Source: Treponema sp.
GTDB taxonomy: Bacteria > Spirochaetota > Spirochaetia > Treponematales > Treponemataceae
DNA length: 47,766 bases
Assembly: GCA_024680155.1 (NCBI GenBank)
Contig: JAILCM010000146.1
Span: 1 to 47,766 of the forward strand
Direction of reading: 5' to 3'
The translations under genes were made by a program, and so were the position numbers. The notes beneath the pieces were generated by a model. That model ran no database searches, was not told where the DNA came from, and saw only the letters and a list, made by a program, of their open reading frames with translations. Below are positions 13,373-30,468 of the stretch, piece by piece (position 1 is the stretch's first letter; each line of letters opens with the position of its first letter).

Positions 13373-14629
13373 TTAGCTTAATTCATTAACGCGTTCAATT
13401 GGAGAAAGAATTTCAGTTACACGAACACCAAAGTTTTCATCAATAACTACAACTTCCCCTTTTGCAATCGCTTTATGATTTACAAGAATGTCTACAGGTT
13501 CACCGGCAAGTTTATCCAACTCGATGATGGTACCTTCACCCATTCCAAGAATATCCTTAATTGATTTTTTAGTACGACCAAGTTCTACGGTCATCTCCAT
13601 GAATACGTCCATAATAAGGCTGATGTTGCCCTGTTCGGTTGGAGTCATATTCGTTTGAAGATTTGGGAACTGGAGCTGCTGAACGTTTGGAACATTCATT
13701 CCCATATTAACGCCCATATTAGCCGGCATTCCCATACCGCCCATGTTCATCCCCATTCCACCGGCAGGCATTCCCATACCCATCATCTGCTGGTTAGGCA
13801 TTCCACCCATAGCGCCCATACCACCCATCTGATTAGGCATTCCGCCACCCATCTGGCCCATACCCATTCCGGTGTTCATTCCGCCCATTGCTCCACCCAT
13901 AGGCGAATTCATATTCATTCCGCCGCCCATACCAGGCATTTCGGTCATTCCAACTGGAGAACCAAGTTCTTCTGGAGCATCTGCAACACCAAGAGCATTA
14001 CAGATTTTTTCCGCAACTTCACCACCCATACATTCCCAAACTGTATAAGCAGCACCATCCAATGTAAGTGGATAAGAAGAAAGAACAAAATTTCCCTGAG
14101 GGAACATTACCATTGCTTTTGATTCATTTACACTTTCGGGTGTAGCATAAGCAAGACCAGGCAATTTTCCACTCTGATCAAGAACATTAATTTGAGCACT
14201 AATATGAGTAGCAATAATTTCGGAAACAACAGAAAGAACCATATCATCAACTTCTGTTGCTTCTTCAGAATTAACTAAAGCAAAAAGTTTAAGCGCAAAA
14301 TCGGTAGAAAGAAGATAAAGATGACTACCTTTAATTCCCTGATTGTAATCAGCACTAACACCAACTACAACTTCTGGCAAACGGGCAAGAACTTTATCTC
14401 TATCAACTTCTTCTACAACAGGATTATCAACTGTAAAAGATGCACCCGTATATTTATTGACATTTTCTTCCAGTTTAGGTTTTAAATCATCCGCCAGTTT
14501 CTGCAATGTAGGGATATCAATATGGTAACTTGGACCATTACCAACATGTCCCGATGAATTCAATCCATCGATTGCAACTCCAGAAAGCAAAGCATCAATT
14601 TCGTCTTGTGAGATAGCACCATCACTCAT
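13373..14629 (-). CDS. fliY: Flagellar motor switch protein FliY (CheC-like region plus C-terminal FliN domain) with a long Met/Gly-rich linker
   Basis: N-terminal [18 protein letters not shown]-terminal SpoA/FliN domain ([73 protein letters not shown]); internal low-complexity [23 protein letters not shown]. Confidence 0.93.
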
Positions 14630-15659
14630 AGGTTTCGTCTCCTTCTACGGATAATTCTTCAAATTCTTCAGCATCCTCATCTTCAAGCTTTCCGGTAATT
14701 TGAACGGCCATTTTCTTACCTACAACACCAGGCTGACAATAAAATTTCTTTTTACTGCCTACACTTAAAGTTAAAGGATCTCCAACTTTTATACTCGAAA
14801 GACGTACTACATCACCGACACGCAATGATAAAACATCTCTAATTGGCAAATTAATTGTTCCAATATCAGCAACAACATCCATATCAACAGATGAAAGCTG
14901 ATTTTTAATTGTTCCCAAATACTGTGTAGTTGAACTTCGTCTAACAGAAGAAAACCAGAACTGGGATGAAAGTTTAGATACAATCGGCTCAATAGTAAGA
15001 TAAGGAATACAAAAGTTCATCATTCCTTCTTCTTCACCGACTTTAGTTTCCAAAGTTACAAGAACGACCATTTCTGTTGGTGGTACAATCTGTGCAAACT
15101 GAGGATTTGTTTCAATCTGAGCAAAACGAGGTCGTAAATCGATTACCTGTGTCCATGCTTCACGCATATTTGCAAGAATACGTACGATAACACCTTCCAT
15201 TACTTCCTGCTCAATATCGGTAAGGTCGCGGTTTTTATTTCCAGAAGTTGCACCACGTCCACCAAAAAGACGGTCAATCATACAGAAAGTGATTGCAGGG
15301 TCAATTTCCAATACGGCATTTCCTTTTAGAGGATCCATATTGATCACGGCAAGAGTTGTAGGTGTTGGAATAGAACGAATAAATTCCTCGTAAGTAAGCT
15401 GATCTACAGAAGCAACGTGTACATGAACCAAAGAACGAAGCTGTGCAGAAAGAGAAGTCGTTGTTAAACGCGCAAAAGTTTCGTGCATATTCGAAACTGT
15501 ACGAAGCTGTTCCTTTGAGAATTTATCTGGTCGCTTAAAATCGTAAATCTTTATTTTTCGCTGGCTTGAAACCGGCTTAAAGTCATCTGCCTCCGTATCA
15601 CCGGAACTGATGGCACTAAGAAGCTGGTCAATTTCGTCCTGCGACAGAACCTCGTTCAT
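14622..15659 (-). CDS. fliM: Flagellar motor switch protein FliM
   Basis: [59 protein letters not shown]. Confidence 0.96.
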
Positions 15660-15675
15660 TTACTTTCCACCTTAC

Positions 15676-16236
15676 CTAGTTCGGATCTACAACGCTAAGT
15701 TCATCAAAACTTACTGCGCGTATTTTTGAACCACTCAAAACTTTATCATTTATACCATTACGAATTTCCATCTGGAATTTTTCTTCGTTATTTGCATTTT
15801 TTAATTCAGAAGCTGTTTTTCCGCGGAAATATCGTCTTAAAAATTCCTTAATCTCTACTGAACGGGATGTAATTTCGGTAGAAGTAGCTTTATCATCTTT
15901 TTTATAGCCAAGGAATACATTTACACGTACAGTTGCAGCAGGTTCATCGCTGGTAAAAGTCTGAATTGTACCGATAGATTTATACCAGTCGTAAGTTTCA
16001 CGCTGACCGGAAGTATAATCTTCTGTAGCAATACCAACGCTCTGATTTTTTGACTGATTATGATTATTTATAGAAATTGCAACGATTACAATTGTGATTA
16101 CAACAATAATTGCCGCTACACCAATGATAATCCATTTAAGCATACCGGTAATCAAGTTTTTTATACCGCCACCCTTTTTCGCAGGTGCTGCAGCTCCGCC
16201 CTCGTCACCAAGGTCCAAGTCGTCATTGTCTGCCAT
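15676..16236 (-). CDS. fliL: Flagellar basal-body associated protein FliL
   Basis: Single N-terminal TM followed by FliL domain; position between motB and fliM. Confidence 0.88.
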   Translation of the reverse strand: MADNDDLDLGDEGGAAAPAKKGGGIKNLITGMLKWIIIGVAAIIVVITIVIVAISINNHNQSKNQSVGIATEDYTSGQRETYDWYKSIGTIQTFTSDEPAATVRVNVFLGYKKDDKATSTEITSRSVEIKEFLRRYFRGKTASELKNANNEEKFQMEIRNGINDKVLSGSKIRAVSFDELSVVDPN

Positions 16237-16269
16237 ATCCCCTCCAGCAAAACATATTATATGATAACA

Positions 16270-16998
16270 TTAAAAATGTCCTTCGTCTAGAATAATTATA
16301 TCTACACGTCTGTTATATGCCCGTCCTTCTTCCGTTTCATTCGGGAATTTTGGTCTGGTATCAGCATATCCCGCAATAGAAAATTGACTTTCATTTACTC
16401 CATAATCGGCAAGATAATGAAGAACATTAACAGCTCTTGTAGCAGATAATTCCCAATTACTAGGAAATTTTGAATCTATAGAAACAGGCGTATTATCGGT
16501 ATGCCCTTCTATTCTAAAACGACGGTCTTTTAATTCATCAGAACGGAAAAATTCAGAAAGTCTGAGCAAAGTTTCGCGGGTATCGTTAATATTTAAATCC
16601 GCACTTCCCTGTTCAAAAAAATTATCAGAAAGAAGCGTGATTATAAGTCCACGTTCATCACTTGTAAGCGTAATTCTGTTTGATTTAACATCTGGAGCAA
16701 ACAAACTTACAGCCTTCTTTTTTGCAAGACCAAGTGATTTACCTTTTTCCAAAGATGGCAGAGAATTTATGTTATTTCCCAAATCCGCAAGCTTACCTGC
16801 CGAAAGTGACATACCACCAGATGTAGTTTCTGATTCAGACATCTGGAGACTCTGCGTAATGGTTGCAAGCATCGTAGGATCAACTTCCGACGGATTGTAA
16901 AGCATTACGAAGAAGCAGAGCATTAATGTAATCATGTCACCATAGGTACCCATCCAGGCTGCGGATGGTTTTTCAGGTGCCTTACTTTTTCTTCCCAT
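16270..16998 (-). CDS. motB: Flagellar stator protein MotB
   Basis: TM segment with conserved Asp ([28 protein letters not shown]) and OmpA-like peptidoglycan-binding domain ([12 protein letters not shown]...[16 protein letters not shown]...GYADTRP). Confidence 0.95.
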
Positions 16999-17059
16999 TC
17001 TATCTTCCTATTTTTTCTTCCATATAAAAGTACAAATTCAACAAATCAGACTAAAAAAC

Positions 17060-17842
17060 TTAGTCTTTAAGAACATCAGCTTCAATTGCCTTTCTTGTAA
17101 CAGGGTCAAGATAAGTAAGAAGCTTCTGAGCCATAATACGAGGGTTTTCACCGGCCTGAATTGCAAGTACACCTTCGATAATCATTTCTTTTGAACGCAT
17201 CTCCTGTGAGTTATGTGCCGCAAGTTTTGTAGAGAACGGTGTAATCAACCAGTTGGCCATCATAGAACCGTACAATGTTGTAATCAACGCAACGGCCATG
17301 TTAGGACCAAGGGATGACTTATCTTCCAAGTTGTTCAACATACCAATAAGACCAAGTACGGTACCCATCATACCAAAACCTGGTGCAAATCCGGCCCAGG
17401 CATTAATAAGACCAATCCAGTCCATATGACGTGCTTCTACCTGGTTCATTTCGTTTTCCATAATTGCACGGATAATATTTCCATCCGTACCATCAACTAC
17501 AAGACGCAAGCCCATTTTCATAAAATCATCTTCCAAATCGTCAAGACCATCTTCCAAAGCAAGAATACCTTCACGACGAGCCTTTTCTGAAAGAGCCTGC
17601 ATATTTATTACAATATTTTTTTCACCAAAATCAGGAACTTTAAACGCTCTCATCATAACTTTGAACATTCCGAGCGCCTTTTTAAGAGGAGCCGCAATAA
17701 ACATTGCAAAATAAGAACCACCGATTGTCATGAATACAGATGGAATATCGATAATTCCACCCAATGTACCACCTGATGTCAATACAGACATGACGATCAT
17801 GGCTGCACCACCGACAATACCAATTATACTTGCTATATCCAT
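17060..17842 (-). CDS. motA: Flagellar stator protein MotA
   Basis: MotA signature (GLINAWAGFAPGFGMMGTVLGLIGMLNNL, VALITTLYGSMMANWLITPFSTKL). Confidence 0.96.
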   Translation of the reverse strand: MDIASIIGIVGGAAMIVMSVLTSGGTLGGIIDIPSVFMTIGGSYFAMFIAAPLKKALGMFKVMMRAFKVPDFGEKNIVINMQALSEKARREGILALEDGLDDLEDDFMKMGLRLVVDGTDGNIIRAIMENEMNQVEARHMDWIGLINAWAGFAPGFGMMGTVLGLIGMLNNLEDKSSLGPNMAVALITTLYGSMMANWLITPFSTKLAAHNSQEMRSKEMIIEGVLAIQAGENPRIMAQKLLTYLDPVTRKAIEADVLKD

Positions 17843-20367: not shown

Positions 20368-21657
20368 TTATAAAAGCTCCAGAAATTTGTTTAAAAATAA
20401 AATTCCTTTTGCATTAAGACTATATCTTGTGTCATTTTTTACACAGCTTTCAGAACCACATGAACAAAGTTCAATTTTTGCAAGACCTTTTTGCTGCCAC
20501 TCTTTAAAAAGATTTTCTACTTTTTGTGGAAATTTGTCAGAAAAACAAGATTCGTATTCATTTTTTGTTATTCCGCTTAATTTACGAAGCCCCATCATAA
20601 AAAATTCAAATTTTGAATCTTCAATATTTACAATTTCTTTTTCACCGGGAACTTCATCAAGAAAAGAGAAAATCATTTCACTCTCAGAAGCTCCATCTCC
20701 CCCGCCAGTTGCAATTCCAGCATAGAAATTTTCTTTTTGCCAAAAATCAATGTACTCCTGCAAATTACGGGAATTGATAAAACGCAGCGCAGTTCCATCA
20801 TTATTATACAAAGTTCCAGTTGCACCGCTTCCACATCCATAATAACTTTTACGCGTCCAATAAGCCATATTATGAATACTTTCTTTACCCGACAAGCAAA
20901 AATTTGAAATTTCGTATTGAGAATAACCTTTTGACTCTAAAAATTCTTTTCCACAAAACCAAAGTTTATCAGAAAAATCAAAATCATAAGGAATTTCGCC
21001 TGAATCAATTTTTTTTCCAAGCGGAGTTTCTTCTTCCACCACTAGCGAATATAAAGAAATGTGAGACGGTTTTATTTTTACTGCAAGTTCGAGTCCATTT
21101 TGTAAAGATTCTTCAGTTTCAAAAGGAAGGCCTGAAATAAAATCAAGCGAAAGTTTTTTATACCAATATTCATAAAAAAGAGAAAGAACTTCCTGATTTT
21201 TTTCTGAGCTTCCCCTTCTTCCTGCAAAATCAAGAACTTTTTGATTCATAGATTGAATTCCGCACGAAATTCTGTTTACGCCGGCAGAATCAAGACAAAA
21301 AAGAAGCTCTTTACTCACATCTTCAGGGTTCACTTCAAAAGTAACTTCGGCATCATTTTTCAAAAAAGGTTTTATCACATTAAAAAGCGTCTGAATCTGC
21401 TGAAATTTTAAAATACTTGGAGTTCCGCCGCCTACATAAACAGATTTTAAAACAGGGGAACAAAAATGGGCTTTTTCGTTAGAATCAGCTCCTTCACTTA
21501 AACGAAATTTAATTTCATTACAAAGAGCAGAAACATACGAATCAGGCACACCTGCAAACTTTTCTTTACAAGGCACACTGTAAAAATCACAATAAGCACA
21601 TTTTGAGACACAATACGGAATATGGATATAAAGATACTCTGCCACGCCCAAATTCAA
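20368..21657 (-). CDS. hemW: HemW-like radical SAM protein (coproporphyrinogen III oxidase-like)
   Basis: YIHIPYCVSKCAYCDFYS (CX3CX2C), VYVGGGTPSIL, EVNPEDV, GIQSMNQKVLDFAGR, HISLYSLVVEEETPLGK. Confidence 0.9.
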   Translation of the reverse strand: MNLGVAEYLYIHIPYCVSKCAYCDFYSVPCKEKFAGVPDSYVSALCNEIKFRLSEGADSNEKAHFCSPVLKSVYVGGGTPSILKFQQIQTLFNVIKPFLKNDAEVTFEVNPEDVSKELLFCLDSAGVNRISCGIQSMNQKVLDFAGRRGSSEKNQEVLSLFYEYWYKKLSLDFISGLPFETEESLQNGLELAVKIKPSHISLYSLVVEEETPLGKKIDSGEIPYDFDFSDKLWFCGKEFLESKGYSQYEISNFCLSGKESIHNMAYWTRKSYYGCGSGATGTLYNNDGTALRFINSRNLQEYIDFWQKENFYAGIATGGGDGASESEMIFSFLDEVPGEKEIVNIEDSKFEFFMMGLRKLSGITKNEYESCFSDKFPQKVENLFKEWQQKGLAKIELCSCGSESCVKNDTRYSLNAKGILFLNKFLELL

Positions 21658-21660
21658 TTT

Positions 21661-22359
21661 TTAATACAGTTTAATTCTGTTGAACGGAAAATAACATACC
21701 ATTGCTTTTGCAGAAATTTCATCTTGCATAACAGGTCCCCACAAACGGGAATCTTCACAAGATTTTCTGTTATCACCAAGAACAAAATATTCGTTTTCTT
21801 TTAATGTAATTTGCGAAAAAGAACCTTGAACGCCAAGAGATGTTTCCCATTCAGAAGGCGGAATATAAAAAAGAACATTGTATTTTTTTTCACAAATTTC
21901 AAATTCAGTCAAAAAATGAGTTTGACCTTCAGGTTTTACATACAAAACATAATCTTTCATATAAATTGTATCACCAGGAAGAGCCAAAACACGACGTAAA
22001 TGTTCGTTAGTTCCCGGATAATATGATTTTTTATTAAAATCTATCTGCTGAGCGGTAAAAAATATACAAATTTTACGTGCAAGACTTTTAAAAAACGGCA
22101 GTTCTTCATCACTTTTCTGACGAACAAGAACAACATCCCCTCTTTGCGGAGTTTTAGAAAGCGGTGTAACCATTATTAAAGATTGTGGTTCAAAATCTGG
22201 TAACATAGCAGAAGAATTATGTCTTACTGGAAAAACTAAAAATTTTAAAATAAGACATACAGCTGCTATACAAACCGCAACGTTCAGAAGAATCAGAAAA
22301 AAATGTTTTTGTTTTTCTTTTTTAAGGGAATACGAATATTGAAAGATTTTTCTGTTCAT
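21661..22359 (-). CDS. Signal peptidase I (S26) family protein that appears to lack the catalytic Ser/Lys dyad
   Basis: N-terminal TM, box-B-like RHNSSAMLPDFEPQSLIMV, RGDVVLVR, box-D-like HLRRVLALPGDTIYMKD, box-E YFVLGDNRKSCEDSRLWGPV. Confidence 0.85.
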   Translation of the reverse strand: MNRKIFQYSYSLKKEKQKHFFLILLNVAVCIAAVCLILKFLVFPVRHNSSAMLPDFEPQSLIMVTPLSKTPQRGDVVLVRQKSDEELPFFKSLARKICIFFTAQQIDFNKKSYYPGTNEHLRRVLALPGDTIYMKDYVLYVKPEGQTHFLTEFEICEKKYNVLFYIPPSEWETSLGVQGSFSQITLKENEYFVLGDNRKSCEDSRLWGPVMQDEISAKAMVCYFPFNRIKLY

Positions 22360-22481: not shown

Positions 22482-22946
22482 ATGGCTGAAGGAAGAAAAA
22501 TTATTGCAGAAAACAGAAAAGCTCGTTTTGATTATTTTATTGAGGAAACTTATGAATGCGGACTTGCACTCGAAGGTACCGAAGTAAAATCTGTAAAAAA
22601 CGGCAGCATCTCTTTTCCCGACTCTTTTGCCGAAATTCAAAACGGTGAAGTTTGGGTAAAAAATTTCCACATCTCGGAATATGCGTTTTCTTCTATTTTT
22701 AATCATAATCCTGACCGTCCAAAAAAACTGCTTTTAAAACGTGATGAAATAAAACGACTTACTAGAAAAGTTGATGAAAAAGGATATACACTTATACCGA
22801 TTGATTTTTATTTAAAAAATGGTAGAGTAAAGATGACGCTTGGAGTTTGTAAAGGCAAAAAGCAATACGACAAACGTGCTACAATTAAAGACAGAGATAT
22901 TAATCGGGAACTTCAGAGAGAGTTTTCAAAGAATTTGAGAGGATAA
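22482..22946 (+). CDS. smpB: SsrA-binding protein SmpB
   Basis: IIAENRKARFDYFIEETYECGLALEGTEVKSVKNGSISFPDSFAEI; basic C-terminus KGKKQYDKRATIKDRDINRELQREF. Confidence 0.97.
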   Translation: MAEGRKIIAENRKARFDYFIEETYECGLALEGTEVKSVKNGSISFPDSFAEIQNGEVWVKNFHISEYAFSSIFNHNPDRPKKLLLKRDEIKRLTRKVDEKGYTLIPIDFYLKNGRVKMTLGVCKGKKQYDKRATIKDRDINRELQREFSKNLRG

Positions 22947-25005: not shown

Positions 25006-28000
25006 ATGAGCGATTCTACGGACAATACAAACGAACTTGATACATACGGTGTTTGGGTGAAACACGGTGCTGCTGAAGATAATAAAGATTCAGAAAAATT
25101 AGATGGACTCGAAGATTCTTTGGATTTACCGGAATTTGATGACGATTCTGATTTTTCAGATATGTTTAAAGATGATTCACAATTTGTATCGGAAGCAGAT
25201 TCAGAAAATGCGGATAATACAGAAGAAACTCTTACAGAAGATGAACTTGCAAATATTACAAATGGAAGCAGCAATTTTACTTTTGAAGAAACTACAATAG
25301 ATGCGTCAGAAACTTTTGACGACTCAATCGACAGTTCTTTTGATGATTCGTTTACCCCTCAGGAAGATGCTCTTACACAAGAAGAAGAACCAGTTCCTGT
25401 AACAGAAGAAAGTCCTGTAGAACCAACTGAAAGTATAGAAACCGATACTACAGAAGAAGAAATCAGCTTAGATGATTTTGATGCCCCTGCTCAAGAAGAA
25501 GAAGTAAGTTTTGGCGATAATGAAGAAATCTCGCTTGATGATTTTATGGATGAAGGCTTTTCTGATGAATCAGTTGCTTCTGGAAATAACGGTTTTGCAG
25601 CAGATGCAATGCCAACTTCAAGTGGTTCAGAAGAAATTTCACTTGATGACTTCCTTGATGGCGACAGTTTTGAAATGCCAGAAGCTCCAGCCGCTAAAAA
25701 AGAAGAAGTAATTCCAGATGCACCTCCACTTGAAATGGACATTTCTTTTGATGATTCAGCTGATTCTGTTCAGACAGTAGAAAATAACGAAGCAGATGAT
25801 CTTTCTATTGATGATGATTTTGATTCTGCTTTTGAAGAAGAAGTTTCAGAAACAGTAGAAGAAAAAACAGAAGAAGTTCATGCAGACAGCAGTTCAGTTT
25901 CTATGGATACAGAAGAAGTTGACCTTTCTGATTTTGGTATTGATGAAGAAGCTGAAGAAACTCCAATCACACAAAATGTTGACGAAGCTAAAGCAAAAGA
26001 AGTTGTTGTTGACTATGATTTGAATGTTGGAAATGCAAATGAAACAGCACCAATTGTAAATCAGATTAAGGATATAGAAGAACCAGAGCAGAATAATATG
26101 ACAGAAGAAGTTAAGGAAGAAGTAAAGAATGAAAATGTGGAGACAGTGAGCACTTCCCTTCTCCAGCAGATTGTAAATGATCTTTCGGGTCTTAAAAACG
26201 AAATTAATGAACTTAAAACAAATCTTGCAGAATTAAGAGCACGCGAAAATACAGCTGCAGTTTCTCAACCTGAACCAGCCGTAGTAGAAGAAAGCGTTAT
26301 TGAAGATCCTATTGTTGACGCAATTCCAGAAGAACAGCAATTTTCGGGCGGATTCTTTGGTGATGACGACGGTGATGATACAATTGCACTTTCAAGCGAT
26401 GAACTTTCTAACATCCTTACAAATGCAAACTTTGAAGAAACTGTTGCCGAAGTTTCAGCAGAACCAGAAGAAGAAGAAACAATTACAGACGAACCAGTTG
26501 TTACAGAAAACGAAGAGCCTGTTTTTGAAGAAACTGCTGTTGATGAATCATTTGGAGACGATGCAATTATAGAAGATACAATTGCAGAAGAACCTTCAAA
26601 AGAAACAGAAAATTTTATTTCGGAAGAAAGTTCAGATATGTCTTACAACTTTGACGAAGACAATCTTGAAGAACCAGATATTGAAAACTTTGAAGTTTCA
26701 TCAGAAGAAATTGAAGAAACAGAAGACGATCTTCCATCTGAAATTTCAATTCCAAAAGAAGATGAAATGTTCGTAGAATCTTCTTCGGATGATTTTATGG
26801 AATCAGTTGCAGACTCAACTCCAGAAACAGAAGAAACTATAGAAGAAACTCCAGCAGAAATTGAAGAATTTAATGATGCTGAAATTATTGAAGAAACAGA
26901 AGAGCCTATTATAGAAGAAACAATTGAAGATACTTTCAGTGAAGAACCAGTAATCGAAGAAACATTGACAGATAAACCTGTTATTGAAGAAACTATCGAT
27001 GAAACGTTTACTGAAGAACCTGCAATTGATGAAACTATCGAAGAAACAACAGTTGAAGAACCTGTTATTGAAGAATCATTCGCAGAAGGTTCAGTTGAAG
27101 AACCAATTATCGAAGAAAGTTTTGCAGAAGAAACTATAGAAGAGACTCTTCCAGAAGAAATTGCAGAAACTACAGAAGAAGACGATGGAATTATTACTGT
27201 AGATTCAATTATTGGAATGAAAACTGAAGAAATCACAGAAGAAAACGGATTTGCTTCGGTTGATGATTTTACAGAAGAAACTACAGAAACAACCGAAGAA
27301 CCTCAGCCTGCAGAAACTTTGGATGAAGAAACTTTTGCTACAACAGATGACTTTATTTCAGAAGAATCAATTGAAACCGAAAGTTCTGAACCAACAATTG
27401 AAGAAACTCTTGATGAAAATCCGATTGACGAAGCATTTGCAAGCGTTACCGATTTTACTGAAGAAGAAGCCGCAGAATCTCCTGTTGAAACAACAGAAGA
27501 AACTCCAGTTGAAGAAGATTCTTTTGCAAGCGTAGAAAGTTTTGCAGAAGATACAGTTACAGAAGAACCAGCAGAATTTGTAGATGAAACTCCTGCTGAA
27601 GAAGATGATTTTGCTTCTGTAGACAGTTTTGCTGATGAACCAGTTTCTGAACAGATTGAAGAACCTGCAGTTCAAGAGCCAGTATTTGAAGAAGAACCAG
27701 TTGCCGAAGAAACAATTACAGAGGAACCTGATTTTGAAGCTCCAGTTTCTGAAGAACCTGTTGTAGAAGAAACTGTAATTGAAGAAGAAGCTCCTGCATT
27801 TGAAGAAACCGCAGTTGATATTGAAGAACCTGCTGACGAAACAGAAAACAATATCAATTATCTTACAGAAAAAGCTGCACCAGCAAATGATAATACAGCA
27901 GACTTTAATTCAGATTTGAAGAAAGATATTAAATCAGTACTTCTTTATATGGATCAGCTGCTTGAAAATCTTCCAGAAGAAAAGATTATTGAATTTGCAA

Positions 28001-28056
28001 AATCAGATGAATTTACAACTTACAAAAAACTTTTCTCTGAATTGGGATTATCTTAA
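25006..28056 (+). CDS. Very acidic, repetitive low-complexity protein (1016 aa) with a small C-terminal conserved-looking domain
   Basis: Continuous ORF with SD; three EEISLDDF motifs, about five FASVDxF-type motifs, many EEPVIEET-type repeats; C-terminus FNSDLKKDIKSVLLYMDQLLENLPEEKIIEFAKSDEFTTYKKLFSELGLS. Confidence 0.85.
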   Translation: MSDSTDNTNELDTYGVWVKHGAAEDNKDSEKLDGLEDSLDLPEFDDDSDFSDMFKDDSQFVSEADSENADNTEETLTEDELANITNGSSNFTFEETTIDASETFDDSIDSSFDDSFTPQEDALTQEEEPVPVTEESPVEPTESIETDTTEEEISLDDFDAPAQEEEVSFGDNEEISLDDFMDEGFSDESVASGNNGFAADAMPTSSGSEEISLDDFLDGDSFEMPEAPAAKKEEVIPDAPPLEMDISFDDSADSVQTVENNEADDLSIDDDFDSAFEEEVSETVEEKTEEVHADSSSVSMDTEEVDLSDFGIDEEAEETPITQNVDEAKAKEVVVDYDLNVGNANETAPIVNQIKDIEEPEQNNMTEEVKEEVKNENVETVSTSLLQQIVNDLSGLKNEINELKTNLAELRARENTAAVSQPEPAVVEESVIEDPIVDAIPEEQQFSGGFFGDDDGDDTIALSSDELSNILTNANFEETVAEVSAEPEEEETITDEPVVTENEEPVFEETAVDESFGDDAIIEDTIAEEPSKETENFISEESSDMSYNFDEDNLEEPDIENFEVSSEEIEETEDDLPSEISIPKEDEMFVESSSDDFMESVADSTPETEETIEETPAEIEEFNDAEIIEETEEPIIEETIEDTFSEEPVIEETLTDKPVIEETIDETFTEEPAIDETIEETTVEEPVIEESFAEGSVEEPIIEESFAEETIEETLPEEIAETTEEDDGIITVDSIIGMKTEEITEENGFASVDDFTEETTETTEEPQPAETLDEETFATTDDFISEESIETESSEPTIEETLDENPIDEAFASVTDFTEEEAAESPVETTEETPVEEDSFASVESFAEDTVTEEPAEFVDETPAEEDDFASVDSFADEPVSEQIEEPAVQEPVFEEEPVAEETITEEPDFEAPVSEEPVVEETVIEEEAPAFEETAVDIEEPADETENNINYLTEKAAPANDNTADFNSDLKKDIKSVLLYMDQLLENLPEEKIIEFAKSDEFTTYKKLFSELGLS

Positions 28057-28979
28057 TGGGATTGCTTAGTACATTGGAGGGGAAACACTTCCCCTCTGAA
28101 GTAAAAGCAACAGAACCAGAGCAAAAATCACAAGCCGTCGCTAACAAAGAAAACATTGGACTGTTGCAAAAAACATTAAAACTTTCCGCAAATCAAAAAC
28201 AAGATTCCACAAATATTTCTCAAACTCTTTACAATTATAATCTTTTATTTTGTGCACTTTTTGAAAAACACGAAAATCATTTTTTAATTACAAACAGTTA
28301 CAATCTTGATTCAAAATCAATTTTTTCTTCCTGGTCAACAGAAGACTTTTGGAAAGGAAGCGTAAAACAAAAAAACTGCTGGCAATATTTTTACAACGAC
28401 GACAATTCTCTTTCACAATTTTATCAGTTTTTTTCTGTTGAACTTAAAGACAAAATTCAATCAATCGCAATCTTTTTTACGAACGAAGATAATATAATAA
28501 TAACTGGAAGCGAACAAAAAATTGAAAAACTTCCCTATTCGTTCGCAGATGAACTAAAAAATTACTTTAACGCTCAAAACAAAGACAATAACACATTCAA
28601 CGCTCACAATATTCAAAATCCAGAAAATTTTTATACTTACAAACTTAAAATTGATATTGAAAAAATTATAGATTCAACTCTTTCTAAAAATATTACTGAT
28701 AACAGTCAGACAGAATTATTTGAAAAATCAATTTGTAATGAATTGCAAAACAGAATCTATGCTTTTTTTTCGTATCCAAATTGCTGTATAAAAAAATCAA
28801 ATACAATTATAAATGCAGTTATTTATTCTAAAAATGAAATTAAAGAAGAATTAATCCAAAATCATTTTATATATTCTATCAAAGATTTTGCAGAAGAAAA
28901 TTCAAGTCTTTTAATAATAAATTTTGAAGGACAAGCTCATACAATCACTGAAATTCTCGAATTCTTGCAGGCGGAATAA
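28056..28979 (+). CDS. Hypothetical protein, translationally coupled to the acidic protein
   Basis: TAATG stop/start overlap at 28054-28058; no family recognised. Confidence 0.7.
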   Translation: MGLLSTLEGKHFPSEVKATEPEQKSQAVANKENIGLLQKTLKLSANQKQDSTNISQTLYNYNLLFCALFEKHENHFLITNSYNLDSKSIFSSWSTEDFWKGSVKQKNCWQYFYNDDNSLSQFYQFFSVELKDKIQSIAIFFTNEDNIIITGSEQKIEKLPYSFADELKNYFNAQNKDNNTFNAHNIQNPENFYTYKLKIDIEKIIDSTLSKNITDNSQTELFEKSICNELQNRIYAFFSYPNCCIKKSNTIINAVIYSKNEIKEELIQNHFIYSIKDFAEENSSLLIINFEGQAHTITEILEFLQAE

Positions 28980-28980
28980 A

Positions 28981-30468
28981 TTGAACATTGAGTTTTTACA
29001 AGCAAAAAATGGAGAAAAAACGTTTTGTATAGATAAAGTTTTTTTTCATTCAAGTTATGCGCCTTCAAAAGAAGCAGAAAGATTTGTAAATACAATTCAA
29101 TTTCCGTATAAACCACAAACTATTTTTATTGTTGAACCAGGATTCTCTTACACCTATGATTTTTTTAAGCAAAAATTCCCAGAATCACAAATTGTTTGTA
29201 TAAGATTATTAAAAGATCTCGAGCCTCAAAACGAATGGGATTCAACAATAAATTTTACGCAAGAAATTTTTGAAACTGAACTATTAAATAATTATGATGA
29301 AAGCAAGCTTTTAAAAAGTTTCATGGTTACCTGGACACCGACAGCAACTTTATTTAAGAAAGAAAACGATTTTATCTGGAAAACTTACAAAAAATGCCTT
29401 GATTCTGCAAAAACACTACTTATAACTAGACAATATTTTGAAAAAAAATGGCTTTATAATTCATGCAGATTTTTTTCTTTATTAACAAATACGTATATAA
29501 TCAAACAAAACAATAATTTTCCAATTGTAATTACAGCTTCCGGACCAAGTTTAAAAAGCGCCCTGCCCGTATTACAACAACAAAGAGAAAAGTTTTTTTT
29601 AATTTCTGTTTCTTCATCGCTTAGCGTCTTACTTGCAAATAAAATAACTCCTGATTTAGTTGTTACAACAGATGGCGGTTTTTGGGCAGCTGAACATTTA
29701 AAACTTTTAGTAAATAAATACAATAATATTCCAGTTGCAATTACAAGTGAAGCTTTTGTTCAACCGCAAATTCTTATGAACAATCCTGTAATTCCATTGC
29801 GTTATGTAGACGGAATTTCTGAAAACTTTTTTATAATTACAAAAACATCTTTTATAACAGCTCAACGAAACGGAACAGTTTCTGGAACCGCGCTCAATTT
29901 TGCAGAATCAATAACAAATGGAGAAATTTTTCTTTGTGGTTTAGATTTAAGTGTTTCAAAAGGATTTCAGCATTCACAGCCAAATGAATTAGAAAAAAAC
30001 AACAGTATTTATGATAATAGAATTAAAAATAAAAATTCGCGTACAGTAAGACAGGAATTTTCTACAGCGGGATTAGACATTTATTTAAATTGGTTCTGCA
30101 ATCAAAAATATAAAAATCAGACATTTAGAATAATTGAAAACAATAAAAATAAAATTAATGGAATTGAAGATATAAATGGAAAACAGTTCGAATCAAAACT
30201 TAAAAAACGCGAAAAAATCGATAAAAACGACGTAATTCAAAAAAGCGAAAAAATTTCTCCCGCAAAAAGACACGAAAATTGCAAAAAAATACTTGAATTT
30301 ATTGAAAAAAATCAAAATTCCGAGGAGTGGAAGCAACAAATTTTCCCAATTGATTATGTTTCTATTTATCATGCCGAAAATATAAATGATAAAGAAAAAC
30401 TTTTGAAAAACCTTGATGAAAAAAATCAAAAGTTAATAGAAAGATTGCGGAAAATTTTAGATGTGTAG
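28981..30468 (+). CDS. DUF115 / motility-associated factor (Maf)-like protein, copy 1
   Basis: FPIVITASGPSLKSALPVLQQQREKFFLISVSSSLSVLLANKITPDLVVTTDGG; GTALNFAESITNGEIFLCGLDLSVSKGFQH. Start proposed at TTG 28981 (the ORF track starts at 28924 inside the previous gene). Confidence 0.8.
   Translation: MNIEFLQAKNGEKTFCIDKVFFHSSYAPSKEAERFVNTIQFPYKPQTIFIVEPGFSYTYDFFKQKFPESQIVCIRLLKDLEPQNEWDSTINFTQEIFETELLNNYDESKLLKSFMVTWTPTATLFKKENDFIWKTYKKCLDSAKTLLITRQYFEKKWLYNSCRFFSLLTNTYIIKQNNNFPIVITASGPSLKSALPVLQQQREKFFLISVSSSLSVLLANKITPDLVVTTDGGFWAAEHLKLLVNKYNNIPVAITSEAFVQPQILMNNPVIPLRYVDGISENFFIITKTSFITAQRNGTVSGTALNFAESITNGEIFLCGLDLSVSKGFQHSQPNELEKNNSIYDNRIKNKNSRTVRQEFSTAGLDIYLNWFCNQKYKNQTFRIIENNKNKINGIEDINGKQFESKLKKREKIDKNDVIQKSEKISPAKRHENCKKILEFIEKNQNSEEWKQQIFPIDYVSIYHAENINDKEKLLKNLDEKNQKLIERLRKILDV

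What the first reader, a model, noticed from the sequence alone, without database searches (positions are those of the whole stretch)
21661..22359. Signal peptidase I homologue that appears to have lost both catalytic residues (pseudo-protease)
In S26 signal peptidases the nucleophile is the Ser immediately before Met in box B (SxSM), and the general base is the Lys immediately before Arg in box D (KRxxGLPGD). Here box B reads N-S-S-A-M-L-P-D-F, placing Ala at the nucleophile position, and box D reads H-L-R-R-V-L-A-L-P-G-D, placing Arg at the Lys position. I re-translated both codons from the DNA (TCT TCT GCT ATG; TTA CGT CGT GTT). Box E (GDNRKSCEDSRLWGP) and the TM anchor are intact and the ORF is uninterrupted, so this looks like a retained non-catalytic paralogue, perhaps a binding or regulatory partner, rather than random decay.
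Basis: partly seen in the sequence, partly recalled or inferred. Interest (0 to 1): 0.62.

Follow-up and report, generated by a model that had tools for sequence, protein, structure and literature searches.

The report
Dead signal peptidase conserved across spirochetes
The gene encodes a signal-peptidase-like membrane protein that lacks both residues of the cutting site, and it belongs to an old side-branch of signal peptidases, found through most of the spirochetes including the syphilis and Lyme groups, that has decayed as an enzyme but is still kept under strong selection, probably as a non-cutting partner or binding protein.

Summary
The two changes differ in age. Arg, never Lys, fills the general-base position in 120 of 125 distinct orthologues from the window's family (Treponemataceae), the rest being Tyr, Phe or Ser. 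Ser-to-Ala is a later, private change. The same genome has a 597-aa signal peptidase I with an intact dyad.

The short protein belongs to one old clade. In about 50 genomes of 18 family-level groups it lies directly downstream of lepB. It has decayed repeatedly: the signature Pro87-Ser90-Lys145-Gly272-Ser278 is intact in all 89 full-length canonical enzymes checked, but in only 3 of 175 short ones. The window reads N-A-R-G-C. Borreliaceae have Glu and Ser at the dyad. Structural residues stay near-invariant and dN/dS is 0.04-0.20, so this is retention, not decay.

Best reading: a non-catalytic partner or peptide-binding paralogue, comparable with S. aureus SpsA and S. pyogenes SipA. The partner is inferred, not shown. 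A weak Ser-Arg protease is not excluded for relatives that keep Ser, but is not credible for the window protein.

The parts
21661..22359 (-). Short S26 (signal peptidase I-like) paralogue, 232 aa, one N-terminal TM helix, lacks the Ser-Lys dyad
   Evidence: AlphaFold2 model pLDDT 83.7, pTM 0.76; PDB fold matches LepB, SpsB, SipA
22234..22299 (-). Predicted transmembrane anchor, about residues 21-42, after a Lys-rich cytoplasmic N-terminus
   Evidence: read from the sequence; model helix 2-41
22198..22215 (-). Box B S49-S50-A51-M52-L53-P54; nucleophile position is Ala51 (codon 22207-22209); the residue at LepB Pro87 is Asn48 (just before)
21970..21999 (-). Box D L121-R122-R123-V-L-A-L-P-G-D130; general-base position is Arg122 (codon 21994-21996)
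21898..21912 (-). Clade-specific motif L150-T-E-F-E154 between boxes D and E; LTEFE in 107 of 125 family members, near variants in most of the rest
21745..21777 (-). Box E G195-D-N-R-K-S-C-E-D-S-R205; structural Asp/Arg kept, LepB S278 position is Cys201
20368..21657 (-). hemW (radical SAM heme chaperone), next gene downstream, starting 3 bp after the stop; conserved neighbour
22482..22946 (+). smpB, divergent neighbour on the upstream side; marks the ancestral smpB | lepB | short | hemW slot from which lepB is absent in this family

Best explanation
It is a pseudo-protease of the signal peptidase I (S26) fold. An ancient tandem copy of lepB kept the membrane anchor, the fold and the structural core, and lost the machinery for cutting piecemeal: the Pro of box B, the residues that seat the Lys (Gly272, Ser278), and in different lineages the Lys, the Ser, or both. 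Most likely it binds preproteins, signal-peptide regions or the active LepB at the periplasmic face of the inner membrane and helps or tunes processing without cutting. Shown: loss of the dyad, the clade, the tandem arrangement in other families, purifying selection, fold. Inferred: the binding role and that LepB is the partner.
For: Dyad positions: the K145 equivalent is Lys in 0 of 125 family members and in 90 of 90 canonical paralogues; Ser90 in 105 of 125 against 90 of 90. Five-site signature intact in 3 of 175 short proteins against all 89 full-length canonical enzymes plus LepB. Structural sites near-invariant in the family: M91 124 of 125; R146, D273, R275, D280, R282 125 of 125. Close pairs give dN/dS 0.04-0.20 whatever the dyad state, including an A/G pair at 0.093 and an N-R/V-R pair at 0.122. 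One clade, support 87. At least 23 changes at Ser90 and 9 at Lys145 on a tree built without those columns. Directly behind a full-dyad lepB in about 50 genomes. Kept in genomes of about 1 Mb: Borreliaceae have Glu/Ser at the dyad, and a T. pallidum-sized genome has Ser/Arg. Fold search: SipA, an SPase-like protein reported inactive, gives the best target-normalised TM-score, 0.74 (PMC4049620).
Against: A hydroxyl (Ser or Thr) is still present at position 90 in 117 of 125 family members, more than free drift would be expected to leave. In Treponemataceae the gene is no longer beside lepB, and the f10 and f12 genomes examined keep lepB without it, so it is not an obligate subunit. No interaction, expression or activity data are available here.
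Confidence: 0.62

Rival explanations
1. A SipA-like dedicated assembly factor: it no longer works with LepB but binds a particular cell-surface or periplasmic client and positions it for assembly.
For: The pseudo-SPase with a solved structure, SipA, is essential for pilus polymerisation and has no detectable peptidase activity (fold match). Physical separation from lepB in Treponemataceae; its own LTEFE motif and a changed box B.
Against: No recurring client gene beside it among those recognised; its conserved neighbours are hemW and smpB, housekeeping genes. A link to periplasmic flagella was tested with FlaA and failed in both directions.
Confidence: 0.2
2. Still a protease, using a Ser-Arg (or Thr-Arg) dyad in most relatives, with the window species as a dead member.
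For: Ser or Thr kept in 117 of 125 family members, nearly always alongside Arg; the S88 position is mostly kept (107 of 125).
Against: Arg is a poor general base (general knowledge); G272 and S278, which seat the general base, drift; Ser was lost many times in the clade, including Borreliaceae with Glu/Ser and the window itself. Pro87, universal in canonical enzymes, is absent in all but 3 short ones.
Confidence: 0.12
3. The Ala codon is an assembly or sequencing error in this draft genome and the protein is really Ser-Arg like its relatives.
For: One base (TCT to GCT) separates the states; the genome is a draft in 329 contigs, 82% complete; nearest relatives mostly read Ser-Met.
Against: Arg122 is matched by 120 orthologues, and independent Ala/Thr/Val/Asn changes occur elsewhere in the family. 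Even if true, the conclusion about the clade stands.
Confidence: 0.06

Closest known systems
Staphylococcus aureus SpsA (inactive SPase I paralogue; its position beside spsB is from general knowledge)
   Same: S26 paralogue lacking catalytic residues, alongside an active essential SPase, SpsB (PMC12445088, PMC2721850)
   Different: SpsA is a Gram-positive case and dispensable; the spirochete clade spans most families of a class, with a family-wide Lys-to-Arg and its own LTEFE motif
Streptococcus pyogenes SipA (PDB 4n31)
   Same: Same fold; both dyad residues replaced (Asp48/Gly85), Gly272 and Ser278 equivalents also replaced, no detectable peptidase activity (PMC4049620); best TMt 0.74
   Different: SipA sits in a pilus gene cluster and is needed for pilus assembly; here the conserved neighbours are lepB (in other families), hemW and smpB
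E. coli LepB / canonical SPase I
   Same: Fold, TM anchor, boxes B, D, E, D280 and R282
   Different: No Ser90, Lys145, Pro87 or Ser278 equivalent in the window protein
Borreliaceae second LepB (BB0031-type; that this is the same locus is from memory, BB0031 is listed as LepB in PMC3757035)
   Same: Same slot: directly behind lepB, near smpB; matches the short-clade profile
   Different: Glu at the nucleophile and Ser at the Lys position, more diverged

Membership tests
Type I signal peptidase (S26A), active enzyme | Nucleophilic Ser in box B | tested here: not met
   Ala51
Type I signal peptidase (S26A), active enzyme | General-base Lys in box D | tested here: not met
   Arg122
Type I signal peptidase (S26A), active enzyme | Peptidase activity | not testable with these tools
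   needs an assay
Peptidase S26 fold family (Pfam PF10502, TIGR02227) | Profile score above curated cut-off | tested here: met
   87.6 against 22.9 bits; 77.6 against 47 bits
Peptidase S26 fold family (Pfam PF10502, TIGR02227) | SPase fold with N-terminal TM anchor | tested here: met
   the 23 PDB matches at E <= 0.001 are all signal peptidases or SipA
Inactive SPase paralogue (SpsA/SipA kind) | Dyad residues absent, fold kept | tested here: met
Inactive SPase paralogue (SpsA/SipA kind) | Coexists with a full-dyad SPase I in the genome | tested here: met
   L002 976-2769, IPSESM and VKR
Inactive SPase paralogue (SpsA/SipA kind) | Lies in a pilus gene cluster (SipA only) | tested here: inconclusive
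   immediate neighbours are hemW and smpB; I recognised no pilus or sortase gene nearby but did not search for them by profile
Periplasmic-flagellum accessory protein (considered) | Presence tracks FlaA across families | tested here: not met
   f10 genomes have FlaA without it, f9 g43 genomes have it without FlaA

The most novel reading that the evidence does not exclude
Spirochetes run a two-subunit signal peptidase system in which a catalytically dead S26 subunit, conserved through most of the class including relatives of T. pallidum and Borrelia, recruits or selects substrates for LepB, a bacterial counterpart of the non-catalytic subunits of the eukaryotic signal peptidase complex.
Probability: 0.3. 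Interest if true: 0.8.

Novelty: new variant of a known kind. Interest (0 to 1): 0.56.

Why it matters
Pseudo-signal peptidases were known to me from a few Gram-positive bacteria. Here a clade of them runs through most of the Spirochaetia and is under strong purifying selection where that could be measured. It is kept even in 1 Mb genomes of the Borrelia and T. pallidum kind. All 47 family members scanned match the Pfam S26 model, and both short proteins tested against NCBIfam pass its signal peptidase I cut-off, so standard annotation would call them active enzymes. That misleads counts of signal peptidases and drug-target lists. The lepB-short pair gives a simple, testable system for asking what a dead protease does in protein export.

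Tried and rejected
Neighbouring Ser as nucleophile: Ser50 sits at a freely varying column (Asp 38, Val 30, Asn 12 of 125) and Ser49 is the LepB S88 position, so neither looks like a replacement nucleophile. Link to periplasmic flagella: suggested by family f12, which lacks both FlaA and the gene, but rejected by f10 and f9. Literature: no paper found on dead SPase paralogues in spirochetes. TP0926, which I recalled as a T. pallidum SPase locus, appears once in a review as a metalloprotease, which does not inform this. LexA K156R as a precedent for Ser-Arg catalysis was recalled but no paper was found.

Full report
Check. The ORF at 21661-22359(-) is real: 232 aa, ATG start, no interruption. 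It scores as signal peptidase I in NCBIfam (77.6 bits, cut-off 47) and Pfam S26 (87.6 bits, cut-off 22.9). Codons for Ala51 (GCT) and Arg122 (CGT) are as reported. By alignment of boxes B and D with E. coli LepB, taken from the MG1655 record, these are the S90 and K145 positions; all 90 canonical spirochete SPases compared have Ser and Lys there.

Another peptidase in the genome. A search of the window's own assembly with PF10502 found one other S26 gene, a 597-aa protein with IPSESM and VKR, so a full-dyad SPase I is present. The assembly is 82% complete, so further genes could be missing.

Orthologues. The short protein has a match in 181 of 200 genomes of the genus (84 of 85 good ones) and in other genera of the family and beyond. 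I aligned 175 distinct sequences. In the window's family (125 sequences) the Lys position is Arg in 120, Tyr in 2, Phe in 2, Ser in 1, and never Lys. The Ser position is Ser in 105, Thr in 12, Ala in 3, and Val, Asn, Asp or Gly in 5. So Lys-to-Arg is old and nearly fixed, while Ser-to-Ala in the window is recent and private. I call the family Treponemataceae because named members include Treponema bryantii and T. porcinum; the tool itself gives only a group code. A 1.14 Mb genome of the family, the size of T. pallidum but unnamed here, has Ser and Arg.

Which sites drift. In LepB numbering, the sites tied to catalysis vary in the short clade: 90, 145, 272 and 278. A side chain at Gly272 would clash with Lys145, and Ser278 stabilises it, as described in the SipA paper (PMC4049620). 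Structural sites hardly vary: Met91, Arg146, Asp273, Arg275, Asp280, Arg282. Pro87 is universal in the canonical enzymes and occurs in only 3 short ones. The five-site signature P-S-K-G-S is intact in all 89 full-length canonical enzymes (the 90th is cut short) and LepB, and in 3 of 175 short proteins, all three from the deep groups f22 and f35; the window reads N-A-R-G-C. This is what loss of catalysis with retention of fold predicts.

History. In a tree of 127 sequences the short proteins form one clade (SH-aLRT 87, not starred), with the three intact members splitting off first. On a tree built without the four catalytic columns, Ser90 needs at least 23 changes and Lys145 at least 9. In about 50 genomes of 18 family-level groups outside the window's family (counted by hand) the short gene lies directly downstream of lepB on the same strand, against 14 where the two are apart; those fetched have a full dyad in lepB and the open frames often abut or overlap. 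The wider slot is smpB | lepB | short | hemW, with a roughly 500-aa ORF between smpB and lepB (hemW and smpB named). In the window's family and in four of the f2 genomes examined, lepB is absent from the slot and the short gene stays; in the f10 and f12 genomes examined the short gene is absent and lepB stays. Borreliaceae carry lepB plus a 217-aa short gene with Glu at the nucleophile and Ser at the Lys position. Family names for f6, f10 and f12 are my reading of genome size and gene content, not given by the tool.

Selection. Close pairs give dN/dS of 0.04-0.20 (Nei-Gojobori), much the same whether the pair is S-R, T-R, A-G or N-R/V-R. Together with open frames in nearly all matches this argues against simple decay. 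No close pair exists for the window gene itself, whose nearest relative is 53-54% identical.

Fold. AlphaFold2 with 47 sequences gives pLDDT 83.7 and pTM 0.76, one long N-terminal helix then beta strands. Foldseek against the PDB returns only signal peptidases and SipA at E <= 0.001; SipA has the best target-normalised TM-score, 0.74, helped by its small size.

Mechanism. The evidence fixes that the window protein is not a Ser-Lys protease, and makes it very likely that it is not a protease. What it does instead is inferred. The tandem with LepB, the kept anchor and fold, and the clade's own LTEFE motif between boxes D and E point to a non-cutting partner of LepB or a peptide-binding factor. 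That lepB occurs without it in f10 and f12, and that it survives away from lepB in Treponemataceae, suggests it is helpful rather than obligatory. A flagellar role was tested through FlaA and not supported.

Known counterparts. S. aureus SpsA (inactive, dispensable; PMC12445088, PMC2721850) and S. pyogenes SipA (PMC4049620) are the same kind of thing in another phylum. I found no description of the spirochete clade in the papers I could search, but most subscription papers are not held. Hence: a new variant of a known kind.

Noticed in passing
L002 976-2769 (contig C230 of the window's genome): The canonical treponeme LepB is unusually long (597 aa) with a large insert between boxes D and E; similar 550-700 aa forms occur in other spirochete families, while the lepB in the ancestral slot is mostly about 330 aa. 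The role of the insert is unknown.
   Followed up: partly
families f10 and f12 (L371, L372, L373): The short gene is absent from the slot, leaving lepB next to hemW; the f12 genomes tested also lack FlaA.
   Followed up: partly
L264 (G389), long gene: The canonical LepB of this genome is split by a stop codon (337 + 257 aa), perhaps an assembly error.
   Followed up: no
window 28924-30468 (+): MptE-like (PF01973) protein with a weak match to flagellin modification protein PseD; possibly flagellin glycosylation.
   Followed up: no
window 25006-28056 (+): 1016-aa acidic, Glu/Thr-rich repetitive ORF with no NCBIfam match; diverged homologues lie at the same place in related treponemes.
   Followed up: no
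window 14622-17842 (-): ORFs that look like a flagellar motor gene cluster (FliM, FliL, MotB, MotA) from reading their translations; not searched.
   Followed up: no
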